Shown: piece by piece, positions 47,211-64,000 of the stretch
Position numbering within the stretch: position 1 is the first letter of the stretch
How the letters are laid out: every line of letters begins with the position of its first letter
Assembly (NCBI GenBank): GCA_002894685.1
Contig: NCRC01000011.1
Coordinates: forward strand, 62,001 to 126,000
Length of the DNA stretch: 64,000 nucleotides
DNA from: Salinivenus lutea
GTDB taxonomy: Bacteria > Bacteroidota > Rhodothermia > Rhodothermales > Salinibacteraceae
Direction of reading: 5' to 3'
Position numbers and translations under genes: made by a program
Notes under the pieces: generated by a model
Databases searched by the model: none
The model's input: only the letters and a program-made list of their open reading frames with translations
Told to the model about the DNA's origin: nothing

Positions 47211-47238
47211 GGCACCTCCTCGATTCTACAATCGAAAA

Positions 47239-48028: not shown

Positions 48029-48787
48029 CTATTGCTCCCGGCGGCTGAACGCCTGGTTCAAGGCCTTCCGGACGCCTCGCTCGTCGGTTTTTCCGTTGTA
48101 GTTTGGGGCGAGTTCGTATTCCTGCCAGGCGAGGTCGACACGTTCGGCCCGCGGTTTCTCTGCGTGCTCAGCCTGCACCGTTTTTGCAATCTCAGACGGG
48201 GAGCTAAGTACTGTTTTCGGATCGGCCTCGTAAATGTCGTGGCCCTCTACATAGCGGCCGACCTCGTCTATCACGTCGAGAGCAATCCCGTGGCGGGCCG
48301 CCTCCAGCGCCCGCCGCCCGAGCTCCTCGATTTCGCCAGGGGCCAAGGCGTAGACCTCCAGGTCTTCTTCAGATCCGTCTTCCATTTGAAGGAGATCCTG
48401 TACCTGCGAGGTAGACGTGTCATGAATTGCTTTGCATAGTATCTCGCGTACGATTGCGTCATCGACGTCTGCGAGCGAGAGTCTGCCCATGGGCTCTCCC
48501 TGCGCGAGGGCGAGGGCTTTCTGCCAGAGCTGGCGGAGATGGAGGGAGCGTTCCTTTTCATGGAACGAACGGCGCCGCTCTTCGAGCTCCTTGAACTTCT
48601 CGTATGAGGTCCCATCCCAATCCTGACGAAACTCCGCTCGAAACGATTTCGTCTTTTCGGCCAGCTTGGCGTACTGATTTCCAAAGAACCCGGTGCCAGA
48701 GGAGTGGCCGATCTCGTGCAGGTAACTCATGTGCCGGACAGCGGCCTGCCAGAAATGGCGTTCCTTCTGAGTTGTAGTGGTTGGCAT
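48029..48787 (-). CDS. Hypothetical helical protein of the integrase cluster
   Basis: This 252-residue acidic protein is almost wholly helical, with HEIGHSSGTGFFGNQY near residue 25. That segment resembles a zinc-metallopeptidase HExxH motif (HEIGH), but the surrounding pattern is not typical. It may be an antirestriction-type ArdC-like relative, where the same HEIGHSTG-like motif occurs. The middle and C-terminal parts are not recognised. It follows the double-HTH gene on the same strand. Confidence 0.65.
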   Translation of the reverse strand: MPTTTTQKERHFWQAAVRHMSYLHEIGHSSGTGFFGNQYAKLAEKTKSFRAEFRQDWDGTSYEKFKELEERRRSFHEKERSLHLRQLWQKALALAQGEPMGRLSLADVDDAIVREILCKAIHDTSTSQVQDLLQMEDGSEEDLEVYALAPGEIEELGRRALEAARHGIALDVIDEVGRYVEGHDIYEADPKTVLSSPSEIAKTVQAEHAEKPRAERVDLAWQEYELAPNYNGKTDERGVRKALNQAFSRREQ

Positions 48788-48862
48788 TGGAATCTGCATC
48801 TGGTGTAGGGTATAGCGAGCGCTTAGGAGGTTGCTGTCTGGTCCGGGAAGAACGGCCGGGAG

Positions 48863-49513
48863 TTATGGGTCAATTCGAAGACTGCAGGCCTCTTCGCAGA
48901 AGGCCCCATACCCCTCGGTTTTGAGCTCGTCCCAGCTGGCCCGCGGTTCTGGGTAGGCCGGTCGGCGGGAATCCGCGGAGAGGTCGAGCGCAAAAAGAGC
49001 CGCTCGAATCGAGTGGCTAAACGTCGCGTCGCCGCTTTCCCAAACGGTAGGTACGGAGTGGGTTACGCCGAGGAAGCGGGCAAACTCGGTTTGCGTCCAG
49101 CCCAGCCGGTCCCGCAGATTGAAAACAATTTTCCAGTCCATCGGCCGGTCGATCCCGCCCTCGCTGAGCCGGGGACTTTCGTGTACGGCAGCAGTCATGG
49201 CTCGGACCACGCCAGCCTTCAAAAGGACCTTGCCGACCTGCTTTTCTTGCACAGGGGAGCGATCCAGCGTACGTTCGATAAGGCGAAGGGCAGCCTTTCG
49301 GGCTTCGGTCTCACCGGAGCCATGCTTTTCCCATCGGTGCCCCGTGATTTTCGAGACGCCAAAGAAGGTGCCCAATTCTGCCTGCGTCCACCCAAGTCGC
49401 CGACGGAGCTCACCTAGCTTTTCCTCAAAGAAGTCCGGCGTCGTGATGGGCTCGCGGTTGGGCTTTATTCCTTCGGCGTCACCAATAGAGGGGTCCCTAC
49501 TGCCGTCTGGCAT
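48863..49513 (-). CDS. Regulator with two HTH domains
   Basis: This 216-residue protein has two similar helix-turn-helix domains: LGWTQAELGTFFGVSKIT (about 40-57) and LGWTQTEFARFLGVTHSV (about 138-155), each ending in a W-E pair, an internal duplication. Its start codon CAT abuts an ATG on the other strand at 49514, so the divergent promoter is compact. It probably controls the integrase cluster. No peptidase or sensor domain is seen. Confidence 0.8.
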   Translation of the reverse strand: MPDGSRDPSIGDAEGIKPNREPITTPDFFEEKLGELRRRLGWTQAELGTFFGVSKITGHRWEKHGSGETEARKAALRLIERTLDRSPVQEKQVGKVLLKAGVVRAMTAAVHESPRLSEGGIDRPMDWKIVFNLRDRLGWTQTEFARFLGVTHSVPTVWESGDATFSHSIRAALFALDLSADSRRPAYPEPRASWDELKTEGYGAFCEEACSLRIDP

Positions 49514-49588
49514 ATGTCGGACCGCGTTGTTATCATTATCAGGGAATCAGGGTATACAGTTGATATAGCACTACCAGCAGAACATCAA

Positions 49589-50059
49589 ATGACTTCCCCT
49601 AACCCGCCCGACTTAGAGCATAAGGGGTCCGGCCCAAGCCGAGACCTGATGGAGGAGTTTCTCTCCCGCTATGACAGTTACCAGACGCGCCGGAACTACC
49701 GGGCGGACCTGAAGCAGTTTTTTGGGGAGGACGGAGCGACCCGGACGGAGGCCGCCCAGGTCGAAACCGAAGACATTGTGGAGTTTCTCACCGAGAAGGC
49801 TACCTCGCTCGCGCGATCGACATTGAAGCGGAAGGCGGAGACGCTGCGGTCCTTCTTCCAGTGGCTCTCGACCCAAGGCCTAATCGAAAAGAGGCCGATC
49901 GGTAGCGATCAGAAAACGACTGATCTAATCGAGCAGGTGGTGTCGAAGACTGGGGATGATACCGAGGAGGAGAAGGATTCAGACGGAGGGGAAGAACCAG
50001 TCTCCGACGAGGCACACGCGTCAGATTGCCAGAAGACTCCTGATGGGCACCGGCAGTGA
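49589..50059 (+). CDS. Stand-alone N-terminal (SAM-like) domain of a tyrosine recombinase
   Basis: This 156-residue protein matches the core-binding domain of phage integrases: LMEEFLSRYDSYQTRRNYRA, VETEDIVEFLTEKA and TLKRKAETLRSFFQWLSTQG. The catalytic domain is absent; instead the protein ends in a Glu/Asp-rich tail. It may be a truncated integrase or a DNA-binding competitor. ATG 49589 leaves a 75-base divergent promoter region with the double-HTH gene. In-frame ATG 49514 is possible but less likely. Confidence 0.7.
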   Translation: MTSPNPPDLEHKGSGPSRDLMEEFLSRYDSYQTRRNYRADLKQFFGEDGATRTEAAQVETEDIVEFLTEKATSLARSTLKRKAETLRSFFQWLSTQGLIEKRPIGSDQKTTDLIEQVVSKTGDDTEEEKDSDGGEEPVSDEAHASDCQKTPDGHRQ

Positions 50060-50417: not shown

Positions 50418-50425
50418 GTGAATAG

Positions 50426-50511
50426 TGCCCGAGAGAGGACTCGAACCTCCACGGCCTATAATGGCCACATGGCCCTCAACCATGCGCGTCTACCAATTCC
50501 GCCACTCGGGC
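50426..50511 (-). tRNA. tRNA-Leu (anticodon GAG)
   Basis: The minus-strand sequence begins GCCCGAGTGGCGGAATTGG, a typical leucine tRNA 5' half, has the anticodon stem-loop CATGG-TTGAGGG-CCATG with anticodon GAG, a long variable arm, the T arm GTTCGAGTC and the closing CTCGGGC with discriminator A. CCA is not encoded. The 5' 26 bases are part of the left direct repeat of the element that starts here, so this is an integration hot spot. Confidence 0.95.
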
Positions 50512-50646
50512 AAATCGAATTTGCAGTTGTGGAATTTGGATTGGGGTCTGGTGTTCCTTTCGCAGTGACCCGCAGCACGCCGAACCCGACACTCCACACT
50601 GTAGCGGTGACCCCACCAGGACTCGAACCTGGGACTCACGGATTAA
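50486..50646. repeat. Left att-like direct repeat (161 bp)
   Basis: This 161-base segment is repeated at 63724-63884 with one mismatch (T at 50547 versus G at 63785). It starts inside tRNA-Leu and ends at TTAA in a half tRNA whose T arm reads GGTTCGAGTCCTGG and whose anticodon region reads TTAATCCG, most like tRNA-Lys. The matching 5' half tRNA is missing on both sides. It is the left boundary of the element. Confidence 0.9.
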
Positions 50647-50815
50647 CTCTTTCTTCTCTCCTACGTCCTTCAATCTCGAAAAATGCGGTGTGCTTCGGAA
50701 GGAGGAAGAGGGGGAGCATCTACAAGGCTCTGGAGAATTTTTTCCTGCTAGAACTAAATAGCTTCGAGATGCGACAGAAAGACTTCGACATCTAAGCATC
50801 AAATCTAAACTCGGT

Positions 50816-51643
50816 ATGAGCGCCTGTCTCCTTACCTGGAATCCAGAAAAATGGACTTGGCACGAACTTCCGGAACTGGCTGACTCGATTAAACGACACG
50901 GACCGCAAGTCAATCGGTGGAGTTCCGGGGTAACCAAATACAAGATTGATGAGGGGGATCGGGCTTTTCTTCTGCGGCAGTCGGAAGACCCAACGGGTAT
51001 CATCGGTTCGGGAACGGTAGTTGTGCCGCCGTATCAAGCTCCCCATTGGAACGACGAGAAAAGAAAGGAGGGGCAGAAAGCGAATTTCGTTCGGGTGCGA
51101 TTTGATGCTCTACTTGTTCCCAACGACGATCCGATTTTACCTCGAGATCTTTTGAGAGAAGAATCAGGACTTTCCGGCGTTAATTGGGATACCCAAGCTT
51201 CAGGCACGACAATCTCGGACGATGAAGCGGAATTACTCGAAGGGATTTGGCAGAGTCACCTCAACCAGGCAGGATTTAAATTTGAGGAATCAGAAAGTGA
51301 GAACTTAGCAGATACAGAAGAGCCTAATCGTGTCCGTCGGGAAACGGTCAGGATTATTCGAGACTCAGCACACTCCCGAGCCGTCAAGGAAGAGAACGAC
51401 TACGAGTGCCAAATCTGCGGCAGGACGCTCCGATTAGCGAACGGCGACCGCTACGCAGAGGCGCATCACGTTCATCCTTTGGGAGAAGGTGGAGAAGACA
51501 CCCCAGCCAACATTATGTGCGTCTGTCCCAATCATCACGCCCTGCTCGACTACGGGGCGATTCCACTCGACTCAGAGGAAATTGAAGGTGTGGGAAGCAA
51601 ATACATCCAGTATCACAACCGGAAGATTTTTGAATCGGAGTAG
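50816..51643 (+). CDS. EVE/PUA-like plus HNH endonuclease, type IV restriction candidate
   Basis: This 275-residue protein starts with an EVE/PUA-like domain (about 1-105; LTWNPEKWTW, DRAFLLRQSEDPTGIIGSG), a fold that reads modified bases. The C-terminal HNH domain has CQICGRTL, EAHHVHPLGEGG and CVCPNHHALLDYG, with zinc cysteines and the His catalytic site. This order is known in McrA-like enzymes that cut methylated or otherwise modified phage DNA. It is the first gene inside the left repeat and transcribed away from it. It likely protects the element or host. Confidence 0.85.
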   Translation: MSACLLTWNPEKWTWHELPELADSIKRHGPQVNRWSSGVTKYKIDEGDRAFLLRQSEDPTGIIGSGTVVVPPYQAPHWNDEKRKEGQKANFVRVRFDALLVPNDDPILPRDLLREESGLSGVNWDTQASGTTISDDEAELLEGIWQSHLNQAGFKFEESESENLADTEEPNRVRRETVRIIRDSAHSRAVKEENDYECQICGRTLRLANGDRYAEAHHVHPLGEGGEDTPANIMCVCPNHHALLDYGAIPLDSEEIEGVGSKYIQYHNRKIFESE

Positions 51644-51888
51644 GAGAATGGCGGTTAGCTTCCGTTCATAGCGAGGCTTCTCGTTGCTTCTCTCCGCCTC
51701 GGTAGTTTTACCCAGCTCCCAAATGTGAGGGTCCCCCTATCCGGTGGCGTTTCTCTCAAACTCTAGCAGCAGCGAGCCGAAGCGGGACAGTAAAACTCTC
51801 GATATTCTCGAGGTGAAACATCAAACCGCTGCTTCATCTTAGTTTGTAGTAACTTTTTGATCCTTGTAAGTACTCATTTATACAAAAT

Positions 51889-52601
51889 ATGACCATAAAA
51901 GAAGTTGCAAACAAAATTGACAAAGTGAGGACTAGAAAGGTTAAAGCGTTGGCTAGATTTATAGGCGTTAATGAAAAAAAAAGAGAGAGAAACTTATAGA
52001 AGAAATAAAAAGAGACTATAGATACAGGATAATAATAAACAGGTGTGAAAAAGTAAAAACAGAAAAAATTAGGAGGTTTGGAGAAAGTATAGATGCAAGC
52101 GTCAAACAGAAGAGTGAAATTCACGTAATAAATAAATTTGGTAAAAGTGAAGATACGAATGAAAGTGGTAAATATAGAAGTAGAACTCAAATAATAAAAG
52201 CGGTACAAAAAGAGTGCAGTAAAATAAGCGTAGAAAGAGCCCTAAAAAAGTTGCCAAAAAGTAGCAAGGGAGGCAAAGAAATATCAAGAAAAAGTAGCAA
52301 GAAAGGGAAAGGAAATTCAAAAGATGAGGGGTATGTATATGTAATGGTAAGCTCGGAAAAGCCGAACCTAGTAAAAATAGGAATGACCAAAAGAAGCCCT
52401 AAAGAAAGAGCAAGGGAATTAAGCTCAAGTACAGGCGTATCTATGCCGTATATAGTCGCATATAAAGCTAAAGTAAAGAACCCCTCACAGGTGGAAAAAA
52501 CTGTTCACGAAAAGCTTTCTAATAATAGGGTTAATCCAGACAGGGAGTTTTTCGAAGTTGAAACCAGTAAAGCAGTGCGTATAATTGAACAAGTGAAGTA
52601 G
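51889..52601 (+). CDS. GIY-YIG-like (T5orf172) protein gene with frameshift in an A9 tract
   Basis: The zero frame from ATG 51889 stops at 51997-51999 after 36 codons. One base back in an A9 tract (51974-51982), the minus-one frame stays open to 52601 and joins the T5orf172 domain: GYVYVMVSSEKPNLVKIGMT, RARELSSSTG, KTVHEKLS and DREFFEV, a GIY-YIG superfamily variant. The joined protein has about 237 residues with a Lys-rich middle. Base composition is very AT-rich compared with its surroundings, a sign of recent transfer. Programmed slippage, mutation and sequencing error are all possible. A TTG at 52251 could start the domain alone. Confidence 0.75.
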
Positions 52602-52992
52602 AAATATTGTTATGTATATTGGGTCTAGTTATGCTAGATCGTCCATACTTCCTCGGTTTCTAGCTGTTTTCCCTTGGAACGTTGGTTGCCTGTCCTTCCG
52701 GCACTTCAAAGTGGTATAAGCGCCCCCTTTAGGAACGTCTGTTTGAGCTATGTCCAAGCCAGGGGCGTTGCTTTGTCTCGATGTCGTCGATAAAGCGCCG
52801 TTCTAAGCGTTCTTGGGGGGTATCTCTTTTCTTGTCAGCGGTCCAAATCTGACAGTAGCCGCTATGCCTCTATTTTGGAAACGAAATACCTGTCCGATAG
52901 AGAATCGGTAGTGCCTTAACTTCTCCGAGAGCAGTTATATGCCTGAATAGAGCACCGAAGGGCGTAGTCCATTTGTCATTCTGAGGGTGATT
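52602..52992. other. Intergenic region, no gene seen
   Basis: These 391 bases lie between two convergent genes. Frames are short. The sequence changes from AT-rich to average composition, possibly marking an insertion boundary of the GIY-YIG gene. Confidence 0.4.
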
Positions 52993-53568
52993 TCATTCCT
53001 CCTCTGCTTCTTGGAAGAGACTTATCTCCTCCACCTTATCATCCAGTTTTTTTATCGCAGCTCTCAATACCTGTATATCACCTTCCAAGTCGGCTATTGA
53101 GAGGGAAGTATGCTCCATACAGTCGTTTCTGGTCTCTTCTATACTTCCTGACAGCTCTTCTTTCGTGCTCCGCAACTCGTCCTCGTATTCTTCTATCTTT
53201 CCGCTCAGGCTCTCCACTTTTTCGCCTACCTCATTCAACCTGTTTTCGAGTTTCTCCAACTCTTCTTCCATCCGATTCTCCATCTCTGATTTGATCTCCT
53301 CCACCTCGCTTACATAGCGCTTGAACACGCCAAACCCTACCAGACCGATGAGCGCAGCAAAAAGACCGACAACCGTTCCGAAAGTCCATCTCTGACTTGC
53401 CAGAATGCTCTGGAAATAATCCTCTCTGGCTCGATACGCCAACACCTGTTTCTCCAACTCGGTAATGCGACCTTCCAACTTATCGACCCTCTGAGCAGAA
53501 ACTGAATCTTGGGCGGGCTGGACAGGCGTTCCGAGCAGTAGAAGGGAGACAAGGAGAGAAATGCTCAT
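52993..53568 (-). CDS. Exported or membrane-anchored coiled-coil protein
   Basis: This 191-residue protein has a signal peptide (ISLLVSLLLLGTPVQPAQ), a short coiled coil, a membrane helix (WTFGTVVGLFAALIGLVGFG, about 70-90) and a long coiled coil (about 95-180) rich in Glu and Lys. Start ATG 53568 is preferred because the longer frame adds no protein-like residues. A membrane-tethered coiled coil could form a scaffold. No family is recognised. Confidence 0.65.
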   Translation of the reverse strand: MSISLLVSLLLLGTPVQPAQDSVSAQRVDKLEGRITELEKQVLAYRAREDYFQSILASQRWTFGTVVGLFAALIGLVGFGVFKRYVSEVEEIKSEMENRMEEELEKLENRLNEVGEKVESLSGKIEEYEDELRSTKEELSGSIEETRNDCMEHTSLSIADLEGDIQVLRAAIKKLDDKVEEISLFQEAEEE

Positions 53569-53877
53569 AGCTTCGAGTTGTGGAGTGGCATCAGTTATTT
53601 CAGCAGTAATCAATTCATCAGTTTCGAAAGTAGGCACCGTCCGAAAGAATGCCCAGCGGAACTCTAATCCGTTGCTCCACCTCCAAAAATCCCCGTCAGA
53701 CCGCTTGAGATGCCGATTTTCGGAACTGCGGTAGTAAAGAACCCGACTTCCCACCCCGATTTCGGGGCTATATCATCCGTTCAGCGCCGAAAAACGGGCG
53801 TTGTGCTCGGCTCCCGAGAGGACGTGTCAGAGCCGCTGTCTTCCGACGAGAGAGGGACGTGAAGTGAAGGTGCTCTG

Positions 53878-54021
53878 CTACTCGTCGTCGGTTTCTTCCC
53901 GACGCTCCTTCGCATACTGGTCCAAGCGGTCGTGTTTGTTCATCAGCTCAATCCACTCTTCCACCGTCAGAGTGGTGCCGCTGGTCTCATTCCGCTTCTC
54001 TGATTGCTCCTTGCCGGGCAT
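53878..54021 (-). CDS. Small polar protein, 47 residues
   Basis: ATG 54021 opens a frame that encodes a charged helical peptide (TLTVEEWIELMNKHDRLDQY) ending in acidic residues. Its codon usage resembles the neighbours. It lies between the coiled-coil gene and the methyltransferase gene, with a 255-base promoter region on its right that has no other gene. No family is recognised. Confidence 0.45.
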   Translation of the reverse strand: MPGKEQSEKRNETSGTTLTVEEWIELMNKHDRLDQYAKERREETDDE

Positions 54022-54276
54022 TGAGGAAGGGGAGGGTTGATTGACCGATTTTCTTTTCGGGGTATGGGGGCTTCACTCAAACAGAACTTCAGGGGTTTTC
54101 TGTGTGGCTCGGGTGTGCACACAGGGAGAAAAGGTGCCTCCCTTGATCAACTGGACAGTTTCCCACGACAATAGTTTGAACCGTCATAACGAACGTATGT
54201 AGGTTTCAACCGCCGAAGAAAAAATAGCTCTTCCGACCTTGCACCAGAGCGACTTTTCATCTCTCTCCTCAATTCT

Positions 54277-57200
54277 ATGGATTCAGTCGATCTCCAGCCC
54301 GACGATGAGAGCGTGAAGCGGTACTACGACAAGCTCAATGAATACCGTAACCTCGATGAAACTCACGAAGGCACGGTCAAGGCTGCCTTTCAGCACGTTC
54401 TGGAGGACGTGGGGCAGGAACTCGGATGGACGCTCGTGCAGGAGCACTATATGAAGGAGCGGAGCATCCGAGTTGACGGGGCTCTCAAAAACGAGTACAA
54501 CCTATACCACGGCTATTGGGAAGCGAAGGACTCCGATGACGACCTGCAGAAGGAGGTCAAGAAGAAGCTTGAGAAGGACTACCCGAAGAAGAATACCGTC
54601 TTCCAAGCCCCAAACCGAGCCGTACTCGTTCAGGATGGGGGGATTACCTTTGACGGCTCAATTGAGGATCCTCAGCGGCTCGTCGATCTGCTGAGTCAAT
54701 TCTTCCAATACCGTGAGCCCGCTCACGACGACTGGGAGAACGCCGTCGAAGATTTCAAGGGTCGAGTACCCGAATTGGGTGAGGCGGTGCGGGAGATCAT
54801 CGAAACCGAGCTTGAGGAGAATCAGCGGTTTCGGACTGCCTTCCAAGAGTTCTTCGAAACTTGCAAGCAGGCGATCAACCCGAACCTCGCCGAGGAAGCC
54901 GTTCAGGAGATGCTCATCCAACACCTCCTTACCGAGCGGATCTTCCGAACGGTGTTCAACAATCCAGACTTCGTTCGGCGGAACGTGATCGCCAGAGAGA
55001 TCGAAAAGGTAATTGAGGCGCTCACGAGTCGGTCGTTCTCAAGGCAGGAGTTCTTGAAGCAACTCGACCGCTTCTATATTGCAATTGAGGAAGCCGCTGA
55101 GGCGGCGGAGGACTTCTCCGAGAAGCAGGAGTTTCTGCACACGCTCTACGAGCAATTCTTTCAGGGCTTTGCCGTGGATAAAGCAGATACCCACGGTATC
55201 GTCTACACGCCCCAACCGATCGTCGACTTCATAGTCAATAGCGTGTCGGGGCTCCTTGAAGAAGAGTTCGACGTGGGACTGGGAGATGAGGACGTTCACG
55301 TGCTCGATCCATTCGTAGGGACTGGAAACTTTGTCGTGCGTACGATGAGGGAGATTCCGACGAGAAGCCTGCCCAAGAAGTATGGAGCAGAGGGCGATCC
55401 GGAACTCCACGCAAATGAGGTAATGCTGCTTCCATACTACATCGCTTCGATGAACATTGAACACGAGTACTACGACCGTGTCGGTCAGTATTCACCGTTT
55501 GAAGGAATATGCTTGGTGGACACGTTCGGATCGGAGGACGAGCGGCAACGCCCACAGCTATTTACGGAGGAGAATACCGAACGGGTCAAACGGCAGCAAG
55601 ACCAGTCCATCAAGGTTGTGCTCGGCAACCCGCCGTACAACGCCTGGCAGGTGAACGCCAACGACAACAACCAGAACCGCACCTACGAGCACGTAGACGA
55701 CCGCGTGCGCTCGACCTATGCGAAGGACTCCTCAGCCACGCTCAAAAATGCGCTCTACGATCCTTACGTGAAGGCCATCCGCTGGGCCACCGACCGGATT
55801 GGAGAGGAGGGCATCGTCGGGTTCGTGACGAACAACAGCTTCGTCGACAACCTCGCTTTCGACGGGATGCGCAAGCACCTCACAGAGGACTTCGACCGCA
55901 TCTATGTGCTCGACTGCGGCGGCAACGTGCGCAAAAACCCCAAGCTCTCGGGCACCACACACAACGTCTTCGGCATTCAGGTGGGAGTGAGCGTCAATTT
56001 CTTCGTCAAGACGCCCGGCGAGAGTGGAGAGTGCCGCCTCTTCTATCATAGAATGGGCGAGTTTCTGCGGAAGGAGGAGCGGTACGAGGTGATGGACGAG
56101 TCCGGGGACTGGCGCGGCATCGACTGGGAGGAGCTGGAGCCCGACGATAAACACCGCTGGCTCGTGGAGCCGACCACGCGGGAGTTTGAGTCGTACGTGC
56201 CGGTTGGAAAAACGGACAATGAGGTCGAAGGGGAGCAGCTGCGAGCGATTTTCGAGGAATACACGGTTGGCGTAAAGACCTCAAAAGATGCGTACGCCTA
56301 CGATTTCGACGAGGACGCTCTCACTGAGCGTATGGAGACGATGATCGAACTCTACAACAGCGAGGTGGACCGCTGGGCCAATCGCTCCAACCGTGACGCC
56401 AACCTGCGAGAGTTTCTGCTTTCGGACGACGACCGAATCAAGTGGACCCGAGAACTCCGGCGCAGTGCGAAAAACGGTCGCAAGGCCGAGTACAGCGATC
56501 AGAAGATCCGAGAGGCAATTTTCCGACCGTTCACCAAGAAGAAGCTGTACTTCGATGAGACTCTACTGAACAGAAGAGGGCGGTTCCCTGCCTTCTATCC
56601 TGATGAAGACGAGGAAGCCCGATCCGAAAACAGAGCGCTCTGCATTAGCGACGTTGGATACCGGACGATATTCTCAGCACTAATGACTGCAGAGCCAGCC
56701 GATCTTCACCTCTGCGCAAGCAAGGACACTTACCAGTTCTTCCCCTTCTACGTCTACGACGAGGACGGGAGCAACCGCCGCGAGAACATTACCGACTGGG
56801 CGCTGGAGCAATTCCAGTCACACTACGGGGATGCGTCGATCGCGAAGTGGGACATTTTCCACTACGTCTACGCCGTTTTGCACCACCCGCGCTATCGCGA
56901 GCGCTACCAGGGCAACCTGAAGCGGCAGTTGCCCCGCATCCCCTACGCCCCGTCGCGCGCGGCCTTCCGGCAGTTCGTGGACGCCGGCGAGCGACTGGCC
57001 ACCCTTCACGTGGGCTACGAAGACGCCGACCCCTACGACCTGAACGAGGTGGAAGACGACACCGCCGAGTACGAGTGGCGCGTCGAGAAGATGAAATTCG
57101 TCGACGACGCCCAGACGGTGCTCCGCTACAACGACTTCCTCTCGCTGGAGGGCATCCCCGAGCGGGCGCACGACTACCGCCTGGGCAACCGCAGCGCGCT

Positions 57201-57381
57201 GGAGTGGCTCGTCAACCAGTACAAGGTGCGCACCTACCACCGCTACGACATCACCCACGACCCCAACGACCCCGATGACAAGTGGCACATCTTGGACCTC
57301 GTGAAGCGGGTGACCACCGTGAGCGTGAAGACGGTCGATATCGTCAATAACCTTCCGGACTTGGGGCTTCCTGAGGACTGA
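54277..57381 (+). CDS. Type ISP/IIG-like DNA methyltransferase with N-terminal nuclease
   Basis: This 1034-residue protein joins a nuclease-like N-terminus, a methyltransferase and a type ISP-like specificity region. Residues 65-110 contain YHGYWEAKDSDDDLQ with Glu-x-Lys of a PD-(D/E)xK site. The SAM motif is VHVLDPFVGTGNFVVRTM (about 345) and the catalytic NPPY is VLGNPPYNAWQ (about 450). No helicase motif is present, so it is shorter than type ISP enzymes such as LlaBIII and could be a single-chain type IIG enzyme. It is the largest gene of the element and may defend it. Substrate is unknown. Confidence 0.88.
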   Translation: MDSVDLQPDDESVKRYYDKLNEYRNLDETHEGTVKAAFQHVLEDVGQELGWTLVQEHYMKERSIRVDGALKNEYNLYHGYWEAKDSDDDLQKEVKKKLEKDYPKKNTVFQAPNRAVLVQDGGITFDGSIEDPQRLVDLLSQFFQYREPAHDDWENAVEDFKGRVPELGEAVREIIETELEENQRFRTAFQEFFETCKQAINPNLAEEAVQEMLIQHLLTERIFRTVFNNPDFVRRNVIAREIEKVIEALTSRSFSRQEFLKQLDRFYIAIEEAAEAAEDFSEKQEFLHTLYEQFFQGFAVDKADTHGIVYTPQPIVDFIVNSVSGLLEEEFDVGLGDEDVHVLDPFVGTGNFVVRTMREIPTRSLPKKYGAEGDPELHANEVMLLPYYIASMNIEHEYYDRVGQYSPFEGICLVDTFGSEDERQRPQLFTEENTERVKRQQDQSIKVVLGNPPYNAWQVNANDNNQNRTYEHVDDRVRSTYAKDSSATLKNALYDPYVKAIRWATDRIGEEGIVGFVTNNSFVDNLAFDGMRKHLTEDFDRIYVLDCGGNVRKNPKLSGTTHNVFGIQVGVSVNFFVKTPGESGECRLFYHRMGEFLRKEERYEVMDESGDWRGIDWEELEPDDKHRWLVEPTTREFESYVPVGKTDNEVEGEQLRAIFEEYTVGVKTSKDAYAYDFDEDALTERMETMIELYNSEVDRWANRSNRDANLREFLLSDDDRIKWTRELRRSAKNGRKAEYSDQKIREAIFRPFTKKKLYFDETLLNRRGRFPAFYPDEDEEARSENRALCISDVGYRTIFSALMTAEPADLHLCASKDTYQFFPFYVYDEDGSNRRENITDWALEQFQSHYGDASIAKWDIFHYVYAVLHHPRYRERYQGNLKRQLPRIPYAPSRAAFRQFVDAGERLATLHVGYEDADPYDLNEVEDDTAEYEWRVEKMKFVDDAQTVLRYNDFLSLEGIPERAHDYRLGNRSALEWLVNQYKVRTYHRYDITHDPNDPDDKWHILDLVKRVTTVSVKTVDIVNNLPDLGLPED

Positions 57382-57525
57382 CTTTCGACATTCGGGGTAG
57401 ACCGTACGTCAACGGGAGAAGTCATATCTTTAAGCTCCTCCAAGTGAAAAAGCCGTCTTGCCGCTCAAACCTGCCTTATCACCGACGATCTGCAGCAAAT
57501 CGCCAACGAACTCGACAACTAAAAA

Positions 57526-57969
57526 TCAAAGCCCCATTTGGAAAGTGTCCTCGTAATAAGTGCCGTCGAATATATCTTGGAAACCCTCTGCGCAAGCGTG
57601 GAAGAGCCGTTCGTTGTCAACCCTTTCGTTCATATCAACTCTCCACAGCTCGAACAAGGCGCTTTTGCCGAAGTCCTCTGATATGGCACTTGAACATTCG
57701 ATCTCTTCAAACCCGTCAGCGGAGATCACTTCAACGGGCAGCTCCGGTTCTCCGTCGCCGTAGACGGACGTAACTCCGTTCCCTACACGTCGGGGAAAAA
57801 CTCGAATCGGATCGCCAATCGCTTCCCGATCTTCGTTCAAGCGGTTGCATATCACTTCAACCTCTTTCTTTTCAAAGAGCCCCGGATAAAACTTCTGCGG
57901 GTTGCCACCTTGCGGCGGGGCAACGAATTCGTCTTCAATGTCGTGGAAAAGCCTGCGGTCAATCTTCAT
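57526..57969 (-). CDS. Hypothetical protein, 147 residues
   Basis: An acidic soluble protein with beta and helical segments (DPIRVFPRRVGNGVTSVYGD, ELPVEVISADGFEEIEC). It overlaps the end of the upstream gene by 11 bases, so both are translated together. No family is recognised. It belongs to a run of small unknown genes in the element. Confidence 0.6.
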   Translation of the reverse strand: MKIDRRLFHDIEDEFVAPPQGGNPQKFYPGLFEKKEVEVICNRLNEDREAIGDPIRVFPRRVGNGVTSVYGDGEPELPVEVISADGFEEIECSSAISEDFGKSALFELWRVDMNERVDNERLFHACAEGFQDIFDGTYYEDTFQMGL

Positions 57970-58255
57970 AATAGGGGAGAAGTAGTTCGGAAATTTCGCC
58001 GATTTCGTGGTTTGGTGTCCGGTCCGGAAACCGCTCTATCTTATCCGGATCAATGCTTACACAATCCCCAATATCGAATACATCCGAAACGTGGCGGTTG
58101 GGGATAAGCGTGGTTTCCAGCTCCAACCAATCTTGGATTTCGTCCGGATTGTCAAGCGATTCCGGAAGGGGCGGGGGTTCAACGTGACACCGAAACGTCT
58201 CGTAAGAGGCGCTTCCGTCGTTTAGGATTACTTCGGTTGTATGCTCGATTTCCAT
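57959..58255 (-). CDS. Hypothetical acidic protein, 98 residues
   Basis: A small acidic soluble protein with strands at the N-terminus (EIEHTTEVILND) and a helical C-terminus (NHEIGEISELLLPYYED). It overlaps the next gene by 11 bases. A terminator lies 20 bases upstream of its start on the same strand, so it needs its own promoter in that narrow space or read-through. No family is recognised. Confidence 0.6.
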   Translation of the reverse strand: MEIEHTTEVILNDGSASYETFRCHVEPPPLPESLDNPDEIQDWLELETTLIPNRHVSDVFDIGDCVSIDPDKIERFPDRTPNHEIGEISELLLPYYED

Positions 58256-58274
58256 AAGTCGGGTTCAGGTATAG

Positions 58275-58312
58275 AAAAAGGCGGCTTGGAGATCGAATCC
58301 AAGCCGCCTTTT
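58275..58312 (-). terminator. Strong bidirectional rho-independent terminator
   Basis: GGCGGCTTGGA (58280-58290) pairs with TCCAAGCCGCC (58298-58308). A-tract and T-tract flank it, so it can stop both strands. It lies six bases after the stop of the 161-residue protein gene on the minus strand. Confidence 0.9.
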
Positions 58313-58317
58313 CGTGT

Positions 58318-58803
58318 TCAGTTGAGGCACCGTGCAACGTCGGTTGAATACGCCATCGCTGCGTGGTGAAGTGGACCAAGCACCTTTTGAAAGGATTCCG
58401 CTTTTTCTCGCTTGCCTTCACCTTGTAGCTTGCGGGAAACTGCATCGTAGTAAACGACTGCCGCCGCAAGTTGAGCGCCCGTTTTGTCCACTTCATAAGT
58501 TCGCTCGTTTAGGTCTTTGATTTCGAGATTGTCCCTCTCCAACTTCGGCAACACGCCCTCAACGGGCGAATCGAAGTCAAGCCCACTGTAACTCTCAACC
58601 GTTTTGAGAGTGAACCTGTCGTGGATGGCAACCCAATCTTCGGGCGTGGCTGGCGTTATTGACCGATACCCAACAATAACCTCCTTGTAGAACACGTTGG
58701 GCGTCATCAAATGATACCTCCGATTGGTTTCGGTGAAGTAGAAAGAGTTTTGAGGTTCTTCCACCGAGAGGTCAAACGTGAAGTGATCCTGTGATATTTC
58801 CAT
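58318..58803 (-). CDS. Hypothetical protein, 161 residues
   Basis: A soluble protein with a beta-rich N-terminus (HFTFDLSVEEPQNSFYF, YHLMTPNVFYKEVIVGYRS) and a helical C-terminus (GAQLAAAVVYYDAVSRKL). It follows the 142-residue protein gene by 16 bases and shares an identical 17-base leader upstream of its start with that gene. No family is recognised. Confidence 0.65.
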   Translation of the reverse strand: MEISQDHFTFDLSVEEPQNSFYFTETNRRYHLMTPNVFYKEVIVGYRSITPATPEDWVAIHDRFTLKTVESYSGLDFDSPVEGVLPKLERDNLEIKDLNERTYEVDKTGAQLAAAVVYYDAVSRKLQGEGKREKAESFQKVLGPLHHAAMAYSTDVARCLN

Positions 58804-59265
58804 TGTCCTAAGTGGTTTGTTATTCGAGTTCTGCGAGAGTTTCGGAAACGAAATACTCCATCATTTCCTGTTTTGCGCTTTTAGTATCAAGGCGTTCATA
58901 CATCTCCATCGCAAACCGGAAGTGTTCTTTCACTTCCATTCCAACCAAGTCTGGAACTGGAATGGTCATTCCTTTTCCACTCGTTTTCTCGATGACACCG
59001 AAGTTGCGAATATCGCAACTGAAGTCCATTGAAAATCCACTCATTACACCGTTGTCGAAGTCACGAATAAACGCCGCTTTGTATTCATCTCCCATTTCCG
59101 CAGCGATTGACATAAACACTTTGTATTCATCCTCACCTGTCTCTCCTACGGTTCCACCGTCCAACACTTTGAAGTTTTCGGTTTCGACGTAAGGTTCGTC
59201 TTGTGCGTTGAGGTTTTCAGAGACCGTCTCTACTGAATAGTCTTCCATTGTCCTAAGTGGTTTGT
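58801..59265. repeat. Identical 20-base start leaders on two neighbouring genes
   Basis: CATTGTCCTAAGTGGTTTGT occurs at 58801-58820 and 59246-59265, in each case ending at the start codon (CAT) of a minus-strand gene. On the minus strand it reads ACAAACCACTTAGGACAATG, with AGGA as ribosome binding site. The copies are exact, whereas the genes are not similar. A shared translational or regulatory leader is likely. Confidence 0.8.
58820..59248 (-). CDS. Hypothetical acidic protein, 142 residues
   Basis: A soluble acidic protein with strands (YKVFMSIAAEMGDEYKAAFI, GFSMDFSCDIRNFGVIEK) and a helical end (AKQEMMEYFVSETLAELE). The stop overlaps the leader of the next gene. First gene of a minus-strand unit of four small genes, with a divergent promoter region of 203 bases upstream. 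No family is recognised. Confidence 0.65.
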   Translation of the reverse strand: MEDYSVETVSENLNAQDEPYVETENFKVLDGGTVGETGEDEYKVFMSIAAEMGDEYKAAFIRDFDNGVMSGFSMDFSCDIRNFGVIEKTSGKGMTIPVPDLVGMEVKEHFRFAMEMYERLDTKSAKQEMMEYFVSETLAELE

Positions 59266-59310
59266 GATTGAGTCTGTGTTGATTCGTCTTCCTCGTTATT
59301 GCACTGCTTT

Positions 59311-59322
59311 ACACGCGCGTGT
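59311..59322. promoter_or_regulatory. 12-base palindrome in AT-rich divergent region
   Basis: ACACGCGCGTGT is a perfect palindrome between divergent genes (59248 minus, 59452 plus), followed by about 70 bases of very AT-rich DNA. It could be an operator or part of a replication origin used by the polymerase-like gene nearby. Confidence 0.4.
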
Positions 59323-59451
59323 ATATATTTTGTTTTCGTTTTTGGTGTCATAATTGTGGTATTCATTATTTCTAAACATTTTTATGGAACTGTAGAGGCG
59401 AGTCACTTGTCTTCAATAGGCAAGGTATTTTGAATCAGCCAGCAAAGACCA

Positions 59452-59748
59452 ATGGGCGATAAGATTAGCAAAGACGAAGCGATGACAGAGCTAAGTCAGC
59501 TCCGAAGCGGTGGGCGAGGTGGGGTTTCGATGTTCGCACCAATGCTCGATGACATCAAAGACTTAGGAGAAGACGAGGTGTTTACGGATACCGTTGACGG
59601 ATACGGTCGGGTATCAGGACTGAGGAGATATATCGACGACAACGCCAAAGGAGAGTTTGAAGTGAAGTCGGCAAAGACGCCCGGTCAGGAAGACGTTGAC
59701 CAGTCCGACGCCGAATACAAAGTGTTCGTGTTTCGCTCGGAGGAGTAG
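59452..59748 (+). CDS. Hypothetical protein, 98 residues
   Basis: A small soluble protein with a helix (KDEAMTELSQLRSG) and strands (AEYKVFVFRSEE). The last segment is like the YKVF pattern in the divergent 142-residue protein (DEYKVFMSI), a possible distant relation. ATG 59452 starts the frame; an AT-rich promoter region precedes it. No family is recognised. Confidence 0.6.
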   Translation: MGDKISKDEAMTELSQLRSGGRGGVSMFAPMLDDIKDLGEDEVFTDTVDGYGRVSGLRRYIDDNAKGEFEVKSAKTPGQEDVDQSDAEYKVFVFRSEE

Positions 59749-59814
59749 AAACGTGGGGCGGGGAGGGGGATTGCGCATTGCTTTCTGGGCACTCTCGACA
59801 GCTCTGTTCGGGCT

Positions 59815-61362
59815 TTATATTGCCGTTGGGGATGCCCTCCGTTTCTCCCCGGCTCCGCTCTCTGCCCACGCTGGTCGGTCTGGGGCAAAGTCTCTGTCGC
59901 TTCCAGAGGTGCCAGTGAAGGGCTCGAACTCTCGGCTCACGCCCACTTCGTATCCGTCGTATTCCTCGGCGAACGCCCGCTTCATCGAGTCCCGCAGTTC
60001 AACTTCTCGGCTGGCTTCAATCACGAAGCCGTCGTGGATGCCGATGGCGCCCGTTTCGGTCATCACTTGGTGGGCAAGGTCGCTGTCCTTCCGTTGAAGC
60101 CGAATGCCAGCGTCGGAATGGAAGTGGTCGGAGATGGGCTCGTGGCGTTCTCGGAGGCTCTCGACAATCGGCTGAAAGATTTCGTCTGGGAGGTTGAGAC
60201 CGATTTCCTCTTGCCAGCCCACTGAGTTTTTGAGACACCCGTAGAGTGCCTGCGAGGTCGGAGCGTTTATCAGGACGTTCGCTACGATTTTGTTGACGGG
60301 GCGCTGGAGTACTTCCAGCATATCGAAGTCGGTTCGGTAAGCATCCCCGTCCAGCGTCTTGTCCTCCTTGGCGTAGAGCATATGGAAGTGGAGATTGTCG
60401 TAGTCCAGCTCCACGACTGGCTCCCCACCGATGCGCATATGCTGCCGCCACTCGGAAGGGACGTTTTGGAAGTCCGAATAGAAGCGACCACCGCAATCCC
60501 AACTCCCTCGACAGAACTGCCGTTGGTATTTGAGCGCCGACTTGGGAACGGTGTATTCGATGCGGTCGCCGTCCAGTTCGTGTGCCCACGCCCAAGCGGT
60601 CGGGCAGTGCTCGTGTGTCACCACCTCGTGTGCCCTCTGTAGCCGCTTAGGGGATGTTCTATCCGTAATGGAGTGGGAGGACGATGAGAGGAGGGAGAGA
60701 GGAAGAGAGAGTGACACTCCCACGCCATCGGCGCTCAGCCGCTCCCCGACGGCTTCATTCACCTCCTCGACGGTGCGTTGGAAGCGGCTTGCTTTGGGAG
60801 AATCGAACGTCCGAATGAAGTTCCCATCTTCTTTCAACACCACGGCGCTCTCCTCGACGATGATGTCCACGTCGGCGCCGATTGCGGTGTTGCCGTCGAG
60901 GTATGCGTTGATTCGCTCTTCGAGTTTTCCGACGGGGTAAATCCGAGTGACCTTTCCTTTCGGGCTCCCCGTCTCGCCGTCGAGGTGCTCAGATACCCAC
61001 TCGGGTGAGCACTCCCAGAACGGCTTTCCTTTCTCCTCGACAATCAGATTTTCTCTCTTGAAGGCGTCGAGGAGCTTCCGAATGCGGGAATAAGACATAT
61101 GAGTCGCCCCGTATCGCCCCTTCCCGTTCTGAATCTGAGTGAGAGGGATGGCGACTTTGATTCGCTTTCCGCTCGCACGAGAGAGGCTCTGTGCTTTTGT
61201 CAGGTTGAAGAGGAGTTGGCTCAGGTGCTTGCGGTATTCTTCCCGAAACGAGTTCTGGCGAGGCATCACCTCCTCGACCGCTCTGTCGTCAATCATCTGT
61301 CGTGCGAGCTGTGCGGAAAATCCTCTGGCTACGTCATAAAGAATCGAGTTCTTGCTCATCAT
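59815..61362 (-). CDS. Polymerase-palm protein (PolA/T7-RNAP-like motifs), possible replicase of the element
   Basis: This 515-residue protein has an N-terminal DNA-binding-like part (HMSYSRIRKLLDAFKRENLI) and a C-terminal region with the palm motifs of family A polymerases or single-subunit RNA polymerases. Motif A is VVELDYDNLHFHMLYA (Asp320). A motif-B-like block runs from NKIVANVLINAPT to ALYG (Lys358, Tyr374, Gly375). Motif C is IGIHDGFVIEA (His443, Asp444). No 3'-5' exonuclease is visible. Proteins with the same core occur, unnamed, in other mobile elements. It may prime or copy the excised element. The function is inference. Confidence 0.7.
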   Translation of the reverse strand: MMSKNSILYDVARGFSAQLARQMIDDRAVEEVMPRQNSFREEYRKHLSQLLFNLTKAQSLSRASGKRIKVAIPLTQIQNGKGRYGATHMSYSRIRKLLDAFKRENLIVEEKGKPFWECSPEWVSEHLDGETGSPKGKVTRIYPVGKLEERINAYLDGNTAIGADVDIIVEESAVVLKEDGNFIRTFDSPKASRFQRTVEEVNEAVGERLSADGVGVSLSLPLSLLSSSSHSITDRTSPKRLQRAHEVVTHEHCPTAWAWAHELDGDRIEYTVPKSALKYQRQFCRGSWDCGGRFYSDFQNVPSEWRQHMRIGGEPVVELDYDNLHFHMLYAKEDKTLDGDAYRTDFDMLEVLQRPVNKIVANVLINAPTSQALYGCLKNSVGWQEEIGLNLPDEIFQPIVESLRERHEPISDHFHSDAGIRLQRKDSDLAHQVMTETGAIGIHDGFVIEASREVELRDSMKRAFAEEYDGYEVGVSREFEPFTGTSGSDRDFAPDRPAWAESGAGEKRRASPTAI

Positions 61363-61753
61363 TCTTCTCTGTCAGTCTTTCGGTGAAATAGAAAATCCCA
61401 ATCGCAGACGAGGAAGACTGAGCAAGCTGAAAACCTCGCCCACGATTGGGACCGTGAGTTGTGGAAAATCTATGGTATGCTTGCCAGTCTTCGGCGGTGA
61501 AAATGTCCTTTCCCGCCTCACTGGTAAGTATCAGACCACGACACGAAGGCGGCGACTGAGAGGTGAAGAAATCGTCAAGCATTGGCTCCTGATACAGGCG
61601 TGACAGACGCTCTGGAAGGGAGTGTGTCAAGGCAATAGTCGCTCCCGAAGATTGATAGAGTGGCTCTCGGCTGCCACCCGAAGCGTCTGTCAGAAGTGGG
61701 CATCTCCCCGCTTTTCCTGACGAAGGTAGATACTTATCTGTGGGCGGGGACAC
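61334..61753 (-). CDS. Possible gene upstream of and overlapping the polymerase-like gene
   Basis: This 139-residue frame overlaps the start of the polymerase-like gene by 29 bases on the same strand. The middle looks like a protein (ATIALTHSLPERLSRLYQEP, LILTSEAGKDIFTAEDWQAY). The start is uncertain. It lies on the other side of the promoter region from the plus-strand gene at 61788. It could be a coupled small gene or a chance frame. Confidence 0.45.
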   Translation of the reverse strand: MSPPTDKYLPSSGKAGRCPLLTDASGGSREPLYQSSGATIALTHSLPERLSRLYQEPMLDDFFTSQSPPSCRGLILTSEAGKDIFTAEDWQAYHRFSTTHGPNRGRGFQLAQSSSSAIGIFYFTERLTEKNDEQELDSL

Positions 61754-61787
61754 GGAAGAACACCTGAACGAAAAGCAACCAGACGCT

Positions 61788-62177
61788 ATGAACGAAAACT
61801 CAAATCAAGACCCTTACCGACAAATCTTTCTCGATCTCAAGGCAGACCTCTCGTATCTCGCCCGAAAGCACGGCGGTCGCCTTCTGGAGCAGGCGGCAAG
61901 ATCCGCCACCCAGAGTGAAATCATTCAACACCTTGCTGAAGATCTCACCCGACGCACCGAGCGATACGATGGGGAACCTGACGAGACCACCGCCGAGAAG
62001 ACGCAGGAGAATACCCCGCCCGAAGACCTCGACTACGCAGATGAGGACGTATGGAACGTGCCATCTGCGCCAGATGCGGAGGGGGAAGAGAGCGACGACG
62101 AGCACGACCTCTCTGACGCCGCCGAAAAGGTGCTTTCCGACTTGATGGACAGGCTGGGGGATAAAGTAGAGGAGTGA
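61788..62177 (+). CDS. Hypothetical acidic protein, 129 residues
   Basis: A very acidic soluble protein with a helical N-terminus (RQIFLDLKADLSYLARKHGG) and a disordered Asp/Glu-rich second half ending in a helix (AEKVLSDLMDRLGDKV). ATG 61788 is preferred over GTG 61740. It points towards the integrase gene, with which it converges. No family is recognised. Confidence 0.6.
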   Translation: MNENSNQDPYRQIFLDLKADLSYLARKHGGRLLEQAARSATQSEIIQHLAEDLTRRTERYDGEPDETTAEKTQENTPPEDLDYADEDVWNVPSAPDAEGEESDDEHDLSDAAEKVLSDLMDRLGDKVEE

Positions 62178-62300
62178 GACGAGCGACCGTCTTCCGCTCT
62201 AAGAAGCCGAGAGATTGAGGTTACCGATGCCACTTGGGATTCTCGATCTCCTCAGAGCGACAAAGACGACAACTCGTACGGCAAACGGCCGGCAGGCGCT

Positions 62301-63386
62301 CTACCCCAGTAGATCCATTGCGTCCTCCAAGTCGTCGGGAATGAAGTGGCTATACCTCTCGGTGATTTTCTCGGAGGAGTGCCCGACGATCTTCCCAACC
62401 TTATAGACGGGGACGCCCTCACGAAGCAGGTGCGTCACGACCCCGTGGCGAATGGAGTGGGAGGTGTATGGACGAGAGAGTTCATCAATCTTCTTTATTT
62501 CCTCCTTCCACTTGTGGCAGATCGTGGAGACCGTTAAGTGCTTGTCGGTCAGTGGGGAGGAAAAAACATAAGTGTCTGACGGTTCTTTCCGCTCTCTCAG
62601 ACGCTCGAACACGTCCCATACGTGCCCGACCGGGATTACTCGCAACTTCCGCTTGAACTTGATTGTGAGCGTCCGCTCTTCGGGCGTGAGATAGACGTAG
62701 TTCCGGGAGTGCCCCGTGCCGACATCTTTCGGTCCTCGCTTCCACTTTATCTGGACCATCTCACCGATTCGGCATCCCGTATGGCAGGCGAGCTTCATCA
62801 GGAGGTGAACCCAGCTTGGCGTGTCGGCTTTCTCGATCCGCTCATCGAGCCACTCCCTCAGTGCCTCGAACTCTCGTTCGGTAGGCACCACGTCACGGCG
62901 GCGAGGCTGCGGAATGTCGACCGAGGCAAGCAGGTCCTCGGTGATTTCCCCTTTCTTCCGCAGGCGAGAGAAGAAGGACTGGATGTGACGAAGGTTCGTG
63001 CCGACGGTTGTGGGCGACACACCGTCGTTCTGAAGCCTCATTTCTTTGAATCCTGAAAGGTCAATCTCACCTAACTCGTCGGAAAAGACGGTTCCGTATT
63101 CCTTCTGCGTCCAGTCCAAAAACATCGGAAGCACATACTCGTCGGTGCTCACGGTTCGGTCTGACAGCTCATCCCGCTCCACCTGTCGACGGCGGTGCTC
63201 CAAGTAGTCATCTACCAGCTTCGAAAGAGTCGACGGCGTATCGGTGCTGAACCGCTCGTCCAGCTTCGCTTTCTTCTCTTCCGCCTCAGATTTGTCCCGT
63301 GTCCGAAGCGACTGCTGAATGCGGTTCCCGTCCTCGTCCTTGCCCTGATAGTAGTAGATGCCCCGTTTCTTGTATATCGAACTCAT
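62301..63386 (-). CDS. Tyrosine site-specific integrase
   Basis: This 361-residue recombinase is complete. An N-terminal arm-binding region (MSSIYKKRGIYYYQGKDEDG) and a core-binding domain precede the catalytic domain. Catalytic residues are Arg206 (TGCRIGEM), His310 and Arg313 (HSIRHG), His336 (VGHSSE) and Tyr345 (ERYSH). It is 337 bases from the right direct repeat, the usual place for an integrase that made the insertion. It probably recombines within the tRNA-derived repeat. A pair of 22-bp-spaced repeats (63486-63517) may be its arm sites. Confidence 0.93.
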   Translation of the reverse strand: MSSIYKKRGIYYYQGKDEDGNRIQQSLRTRDKSEAEEKKAKLDERFSTDTPSTLSKLVDDYLEHRRRQVERDELSDRTVSTDEYVLPMFLDWTQKEYGTVFSDELGEIDLSGFKEMRLQNDGVSPTTVGTNLRHIQSFFSRLRKKGEITEDLLASVDIPQPRRRDVVPTEREFEALREWLDERIEKADTPSWVHLLMKLACHTGCRIGEMVQIKWKRGPKDVGTGHSRNYVYLTPEERTLTIKFKRKLRVIPVGHVWDVFERLRERKEPSDTYVFSSPLTDKHLTVSTICHKWKEEIKKIDELSRPYTSHSIRHGVVTHLLREGVPVYKVGKIVGHSSEKITERYSHFIPDDLEDAMDLLG

Positions 63387-63723
63387 AGCGACCCTTTCGT
63401 TCGTGAGGAGGAGCGCCAGATTTAGGGCGCCTCGGCTACACGAAATGGGTAGGTCGGTTCGCCAGTGGAAGTCGAAAAACCGCCGATTTACTACCGATTA
63501 GCCCGATATTTACTACCATTCCCCGAAAATGAGGGGCGCAGAAGAGACGACACACCACCAACCGTTTTCCCCTCAGCCGCCGAAAAGAGGGAGCATCAAA
63601 GAGGGTTGGACTGACCTCTCAGAGCAGGCAAATCCGACCAGTCCCCTCTCAGAAATGATAAGAGGGGAAAGGGCAGAAAAATAAAAAGACGCCCCCGAAA
63701 TCACCGTTTAACGGCGCTCAGAG
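63387..63723. other. Region between integrase gene and right repeat, with 22-bp-spaced repeats
   Basis: This 337-base stretch holds no gene. ATTTACTACC occurs at 63486-63495 and again at 63508-63517, exactly 22 bases (two helical turns) apart, in an AT-rich segment. That arrangement fits arm-type integrase or excisionase binding sites. Purine-rich tracts (AGAGGGGAAAGGGC) precede the repeat. Confidence 0.55.
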
Positions 63724-63884
63724 GCGTCTACCAATTCCGCCACTCGGGCAAATCGAATTTGCAGTTGTGGAATTTGGATTGGGGGCTGGTGTTCCTTTCG
63801 CAGTGACCCGCAGCACGCCGAACCCGACACTCCACACTGTAGCGGTGACCCCACCAGGACTCGAACCTGGGACTCACGGATTAA
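63724..63884. repeat. Right att-like direct repeat (161 bp)
   Basis: Second copy of the segment at 50486-50646, with one mismatch at 63785. It contains only the first 26 bases of tRNA-Leu and the 3' half of the Lys-like tRNA (minus strand), so neither tRNA is complete here. Immediately after it the flanking coding gene ends (63889), with no tRNA 5' half present. It is the right boundary of the element. Confidence 0.9.
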
Positions 63885-63888
63885 GGAC

Positions 63889-64000
63889 CTAGGTGGCCTG
63901 TTGCTCCCAGAGCGTGGGCATCGGCCGCCGAAGGACGAGCACCCCCTCCAGCAGAGAGCGGTCGAAGTTAATGAAGCCGTGGGCCGTGTACACCTCGGCC
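63889..64000 (-). CDS. C-terminal end of a flanking gene (5' part outside window)
   Basis: The minus strand has an open frame from the window edge to a TAG at 63889-63891. The visible 36 residues include AEVYTAHGFINFDRSLLEG and RRPMPTLWEQ. The stop is four bases from the end of the direct repeat, so the gene's end borders the att site. No family can be assigned from this short part. Confidence 0.55.
   Translation of the reverse strand, partial: AEVYTAHGFINFDRSLLEGVLVLRRPMPTLWEQQAT

What the first reader, a model, noticed from the sequence alone, without database searches (positions are those of the whole stretch)
50486..63884. 13.2-kb element bounded by 161-bp repeats that span parts of two tRNA genes
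Seen: identical repeats (one mismatch) start within tRNA-Leu and end in the anticodon loop of a Lys-like tRNA 3' half. Both repeat ends fall inside tRNA sequence, and the Lys-like 5' half is missing on both sides. Inference: the crossover is in the tRNA-Lys-like half, and an earlier insertion or deletion removed the 5' half, so this is a stacked integration site. The cargo is mostly unknown genes plus anti-phage candidates.
Basis: partly seen in the sequence, partly recalled or inferred. Interest (0 to 1): 0.75.

Follow-up and report, generated by a model that had tools for sequence, protein, structure and literature searches.

The report
Mobile element in Salinibacter tRNA operon
A 13-kb mobile DNA element has inserted itself into a pair of neighbouring tRNA genes in a salt-loving Salinibacter bacterium, an ordinary kind of insertion except that, in this assembly, the only gene for one essential lysine tRNA is left without its front half.

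Summary
Two 161-bp repeats (one mismatch) bound 13.1 kb carrying a tyrosine integrase, a Type ISP restriction-modification enzyme and mostly unknown genes. Relatives in the genus (Salinibacter) have the uninterrupted site: pyrophosphatase gene, promoter, tRNA-Lys(UUU), spacer, tRNA-Leu(GAG). The repeat runs from the tRNA-Lys anticodon loop to tRNA-Leu base 26 and is best read as the attL/attR identity block.

A related element (integrase 76% identical) in another Salinibacter genome sits in a glyoxalase gene with 227-bp repeats that end at the same element-borne terminator. This integrase group therefore appears to carry long target-gene replacements, a known type.

Stacked integration is not supported: to the right lies conserved core genome, colinear with relative G012. 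Missing are 124 bp (in G012), from 4 nt after the pyrophosphatase stop to exactly the repeat edge: the tRNA-Lys 5' half and its promoter.

No other tRNA-Lys(UUU) was found in the assembly, although relatives keep one and AAA codons are used. I favour an assembly error, or a real deletion with a replacement tRNA left unassembled. Reads would decide. A new member of a known kind, with one unresolved oddity.

The parts
50425..50511 (-). tRNA-Leu(GAG), complete; downstream member of the tRNA-Lys/tRNA-Leu operon
   Evidence: ARAGORN and Rfam; same operon in relatives
50486..50646 (-). Left copy of the 161-bp repeat: tRNA-Leu bases 1-26, spacer, tRNA-Lys(UUU) 3' half from base 35; read as one att site
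50816..51643 (+). EVE plus HNH domain protein, candidate modified-DNA restriction enzyme
   Evidence: Pfam, PADLOC
52251..52601 (+). T5orf172 (GIY-YIG type) domain protein
   Evidence: Pfam; PADLOC candidate family PDC-S57
52993..53754 (-). Coiled-coil protein of unknown function
   Evidence: only low-complexity coiled-coil matches
54277..57381 (+). Type ISP / IIG restriction-modification enzyme
   Evidence: Pfam Type_ISP_C 2.9e-94, ISP_coupler, N6_Mtase; PADLOC
57526..59748 (.). Five small ORFs of unknown function
   Evidence: no Pfam match above cut-off; the last one (59452-59748) has a homologue in G003
59815..61362 (-). 515-aa protein of unknown function, phage-related family phrog_4756; homologue in the G003 kin element
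   Evidence: structure prediction failed
61740..62177 (+). Small acidic protein of unknown function, beside the integrase in kin elements too
   Evidence: tblastx similarity of the region in G011 and G003
62301..63386 (-). Tyrosine integrase with R206, H310, R313, H336 and Y345 in place
   Evidence: Pfam Phage_integrase 7.9e-20, PHROG integrase
63675..63729 (-). Hairpin followed by a T run: element-borne terminator at the junction between repeat and integrase
   Evidence: folds to -40.2 kcal/mol, z -4.3; conserved in the G011 element and similar to tRNA-operon terminators of the genus
63724..63884 (-). Right copy of the 161-bp repeat; tRNA-Lys 3' half without its 5' half
63884..63885 (.). Point where 124 bp of the relative G012 (tRNA-Lys 5' half and promoter) are missing
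   Evidence: alignment with L039 10468-10591
63889..64000 (-). 3' end of the conserved chromosomal pyrophosphatase-family gene, intact to its stop codon

Best explanation
This is a 13-kb integrative element of Salinibacter, moved by its own tyrosine integrase and inserted in the tRNA-Lys(UUU)-tRNA-Leu(GAG) operon. Shown: an integrase at one end, long direct repeats at both ends, intact single-copy operons in relatives, and a kin element with the same layout in another gene. Inferred: the 161-bp repeat is the attL/attR identity block. The element's attP carries a replacement for the 3' part of the target (tRNA-Lys from the anticodon loop onward) followed by its own terminator. Strand exchange occurs within the block, most likely near its tRNA-Lys end, and excision would leave one copy. 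The missing 124 bp beside the right copy are not a second integration. They are either an assembly error at the repeat boundary or a deletion linked to integration, in which case an unassembled tRNA-Lys(UUU) must exist.
For: Repeats and integrase next to one of them. Intact tRNA-Lys/tRNA-Leu operon in relatives and a colinear right flank in G012. G011 element: integrase 76% identical, 227-bp repeats at 93%, made of a glyoxalase gene end, with the same terminator at the repeat/integrase joint. Low GC inside, 0.46-0.56 against 0.65 in the right flank. Literature: identity blocks reach about 250 bp when a site lies well inside the target gene, and attP then carries a replacement (PMC10111431).
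Against: No excised circle, transfer or integrase activity was seen. The usual gain, a restored target gene, is not visible on the right because the tRNA-Lys 5' half is missing. attP differs from tRNA-Lys just 5' of the block, so the anticodon-loop 7-mer itself cannot be the shared core. In G011 the two copies agree best at the terminator end, which would suit a crossover at that end instead.
Confidence: 0.78

Rival explanations
1. Sub-question, the missing tRNA-Lys half: it is an assembly error. The real chromosome keeps the 124 bp and a whole tRNA-Lys beside the right repeat copy.
For: The missing segment ends to the base at the repeat boundary, where assemblies break. No other tRNA-Lys(UUU) was found in the assembly although AAA codons are used and relatives carry exactly one.
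Against: The contig is 150 kb, continuous here, without N. The two repeat copies differ at one base, so they were told apart. The join leaves the pyrophosphatase gene whole.
Confidence: 0.5
2. Sub-question, the missing tRNA-Lys half: a real deletion that happened at or after integration. A second tRNA-Lys(UUU), on another element or plasmid, lies in unassembled DNA.
For: Clean join 4 nt after the pyrophosphatase stop that leaves this gene whole. Some satellite elements damage tRNA fragments at a fixed site (PMC10111431), although there the damaged part is described for the attR fragments.
Against: Needs two unusual facts together; the assembly is rated 99.6% complete and tRNAs for every other amino acid were recovered.
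Confidence: 0.35
3. Stacked integration: an earlier element in tRNA-Lys lay to the right and was lost together with the tRNA-Lys 5' half, leaving the present join.
For: The locus is a hotspot: the region left of tRNA-Leu is low in GC, holds integrase-like genes and differs from G012.
Against: The right flank is core genome colinear with G012, with no remnant of an element or third repeat copy. A lost element would also have to end exactly at the repeat.
Confidence: 0.1
4. Crossover at the other end of the block, next to the terminator (in tRNA-Leu near base 26; after the glyoxalase gene in G011). The long repeat would then be host DNA picked up by the element and carried as a passenger.
For: The element sequence starts at the same terminator in both elements while the repeats differ. 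In G011 the identity of the two copies is highest at that end.
Against: It gives no reason why two elements both keep 161-227 bp of target sequence, whereas gene restoration does.
Confidence: 0.3

Closest known systems
tRNA-targeting genomic islands with tyrosine integrase (Islander/TIGER type; PMC4383910)
   Same: Integrase at the end, direct repeats made of tRNA sequence, a tRNA operon as target, uninterrupted site in relatives.
   Different: The block spans parts of two tRNA genes and the restored tRNA is incomplete in this assembly.
icd-type integrations with long replacement blocks (e14, phage 21; block length as described in PMC10111431)
   Same: Long identity block; attP would carry the replacement end of the target gene. 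The G011 kin element in a glyoxalase gene is closest to this.
   Different: Unrelated host and integrase; target is a tRNA operon here.
Haemophilus phage HP1 attachment site (from memory, not verified in the library)
   Same: Recalled to have an identity block of about 180 bp covering parts of neighbouring tRNA genes, including Lys and Leu.
   Different: HP1 is a complete phage; no phage structural genes were recognised here.
Phage-inducible satellites (PICI-like)
   Same: Size near 13 kb, integrase, no recognised virion genes, and some of them damage tRNA fragments (PMC10111431).
   Different: No satellite signature genes were recognised.
Strain-specific islands of Salinibacter ruber flanked by tRNAs and XerD-like recombinases (PMC6060240)
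   Same: Genus, restriction-modification content, tRNA or recombinase at the border.
   Different: Those described are 22-113 kb; the operon used here was not named in the passages read.

Membership tests
tRNA-targeting integrative element (genomic island) | Tyrosine integrase gene at one end with intact active site | tested here: met
   62301-63386; R206, H310, R313, H336 and Y345
tRNA-targeting integrative element (genomic island) | Direct repeats at both ends made of target sequence | tested here: met
   161 bp, one mismatch
tRNA-targeting integrative element (genomic island) | Uninterrupted site with one copy in relatives | tested here: met
   Operon intact in relatives; right flank colinear in G012; left flank not colinear. 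Other species, not the same species.
tRNA-targeting integrative element (genomic island) | Target tRNA restored as a whole gene by the element | tested here: not met
   tRNA-Leu is whole at the left end, but tRNA-Lys lacks its 5' half at the right end in this assembly. Hence the claim is that it works like such an island; the failure may be an assembly fault.
tRNA-targeting integrative element (genomic island) | Excision to a circle and re-integration | not testable with these tools
   no reads or strains
Long replacement-block integration (icd type) | Identity block far longer than the 7-bp core, reaching the end of the target gene | tested here: met
   161 bp here and 227 bp in G011, the latter past the glyoxalase stop codon
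Long replacement-block integration (icd type) | Crossover at the gene-internal end of the block | tested here: inconclusive
   Only one mismatch between the copies here; in G011 the mismatches cluster at the gene-internal end
Phage or phage satellite | Packaging, structural or known satellite genes | tested here: not met
   Only the integrase and one unknown phage-related family in PHROGs; no DNA match to phages or plasmids
Integrative and conjugative or mobilisable element | Relaxase or conjugation genes | tested here: not met
   None in Pfam, NCBIfam or PHROGs scans of the main ORFs

The most novel reading that the evidence does not exclude
The bacterium truly has no complete tRNA-Lys(UUU) gene: the element's insertion destroyed its only copy, and AAA codons are read by an unrecognised route, such as a tRNA rebuilt from separate pieces or an altered tRNA-Lys(CUU).
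Probability: 0.04. Interest if true: 0.85.

Novelty: new member of a known kind. Interest (0 to 1): 0.33.

Why it matters
It defines a small Salinibacter element group, one integrase kin group at two unrelated targets, that carries long target replacements. It also gives a clear test case of whether an integration can cost a host its only copy of an essential tRNA gene. If the missing half is an assembly error, it warns that tRNA-located element ends in draft genomes need to be checked with reads.

Tried and rejected
Group I intron or split tRNA-Lys at this locus: no 5' half in the 108.7 kb of contig C3 examined or in the rest of the genome, and no intron family match within 48-64 kb. Intact tRNA-Lys(UUU) elsewhere: none. 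Second element on the right: none. Attachment repeat for the left-hand region using the tRNA-Leu 3' part: none in the 108.7 kb examined. Element relatives in viral contigs: none. The idea that the 124-bp loss equals an assembler word length was dropped, because the single mismatch splits the repeat into shorter exact parts. Long repeats around the degenerate G003 kin element: none found. Structure prediction of the 515-aa protein failed (pLDDT 35), so no fold search was made.

Full report
Setting. The window is C3:62001-126000 of a 76-contig draft genome (3.55 Mb, 99.6% complete). Its relatives are Salinibacter: relative G002 has a contig of 3,551,823 bp, which from memory is the chromosome length of S. 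ruber DSM 13855. The kin genome G011 is a named MAG, QS_3_64_15.

Observation. The 161-bp repeats are exact but for one base. ARAGORN finds one tRNA in the window, tRNA-Leu(GAG) at 50425-50511 minus. The other end of each copy equals bases 35 onward of tRNA-Lys(UUU).

Ancestral site. A search of relatives with the operon sequence, followed by ARAGORN, found tRNA-Lys(TTT) followed by tRNA-Leu(GAG) in 15 loci. A promoter-like block (GAACAGATG...GCATAYATAG) lies upstream of tRNA-Lys in the genus. In G012, G009 and G014 the gene beyond it is the same as in the window's right flank; Pfam calls it inorganic pyrophosphatase. In G012 the right flank is colinear and mostly 85-99% identical in translated comparison over 9 kb.

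What is missing. Between the right copy and the pyrophosphatase stop, G012 has 124 bp that the window lacks: the tRNA-Lys 5' half and the promoter block. This segment is not elsewhere in the assembly. ARAGORN, Rfam, BLAST and pattern searches recover tRNAs for every amino acid, but for lysine only anticodon CTT. Nine relatives each show one exact tRNA-Lys(TTT) pattern match, at this locus. AAA is used 23 times in nine right-flank genes and 76 times in the element. A true absence should therefore be lethal (established knowledge: CUU anticodons read AAG only). The edge of the missing segment equals the edge of the repeat to the base. That fits an error at a repeat boundary or a break at an integrase cut, and fits an independent deletion poorly (inference).

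The element. Between the repeats are an EVE/HNH protein, a T5orf172 nuclease, a coiled-coil protein, a Type ISP restriction-modification enzyme, small unknown ORFs, a 515-aa phage-related unknown, a small acidic protein and the integrase. GC is 0.46-0.56 against 0.65 in the right flank. No DNA match exists in the phage or plasmid collections.

Kin elements. In the family and order only G011 and G003 carry a close integrase. In G011 the integrase (76%) lies in a 6.9-kb element between 227-bp repeats (93%) of a glyoxalase gene end. The sequence joining the repeat to the integrase is the same hairpin terminator as in the window. Similar terminators follow tRNA genes of the genus, including this very operon in G010. 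G003 has a degenerate kin integrase next to a second integrase, with a homologue of the 515-aa protein; no comparable flanking repeats were found there in the 75 kb examined.

Mechanism. The simplest reading is a known one: attP carries a long block that replaces the end of the target. Blocks up to about 250 bp are described for icd and tRNA sites (PMC10111431), and islands that restore the split tRNA gene are standard (abstract of PMC4383910). In the window the block goes past tRNA-Lys into tRNA-Leu. One way to get there is an attP that once held the whole operon tail and lost most of tRNA-Leu between two ACGC words; this is inference from the G010 sequence. The crossover position is not fixed by the data.

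On confidences: the 0.78 is for the element reading. The assembly-error and real-deletion rivals are readings of one sub-question, the missing tRNA-Lys half, and are not alternatives to the element itself; nor is the rival about the crossover end.

Verdict. A real integrated element of ordinary type with a long, two-tRNA identity block. The stacked-integration reading is not supported. The missing tRNA-Lys half is the one point of interest and needs reads.

Noticed in passing
G000:C21:20966-21318 (in L087 and L035): A tRNA-Arg gene with anticodon TCT is interrupted in the anticodon loop by about 250 nt with group I-like motifs; ARAGORN and Rfam miss it, and the 5' exon pattern with a non-tRNA continuation recurs in several Salinibacter relatives.
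   Followed up: partly
G000:C2:54076-54137 and C2:101217-101290 (L033, L061): A second candidate element about 47 kb long: 52-bp repeat (98%) of the tRNA-Lys(CTT) 3' part including the whole anticodon stem-loop, with the tRNA intact at the other end.
   Followed up: partly
window 45723-50059: Left of tRNA-Leu: a tyrosine recombinase (45723-47210), HTH proteins and a short integrase N-terminal domain ORF (49514-50059), in a region not colinear with G012; no attachment repeat found.
   Followed up: partly
G000:C2:94676-94785 (L085 677-786, minus): A tRNA-like sequence beside tRNA-Gly(GCC) scores 50 bits in Rfam but has an extra stem in the anticodon/variable region and is not called by ARAGORN.
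   Followed up: no
G003:C4:172629-175088 (L103 12626-15088): A degenerate copy of the kin integrase lies head-to-head with a second, intact integrase 39% identical to the window's, suggesting replacement of one integrase by another.
   Followed up: no
L013, L016, L011 after tRNA-Leu; L108; L111: The same hairpin terminator family (CTGAGCGCCGT...CGGTGATCTC) recurs after different tRNA genes of the genus and at the ends of the mobile elements.
   Followed up: partly
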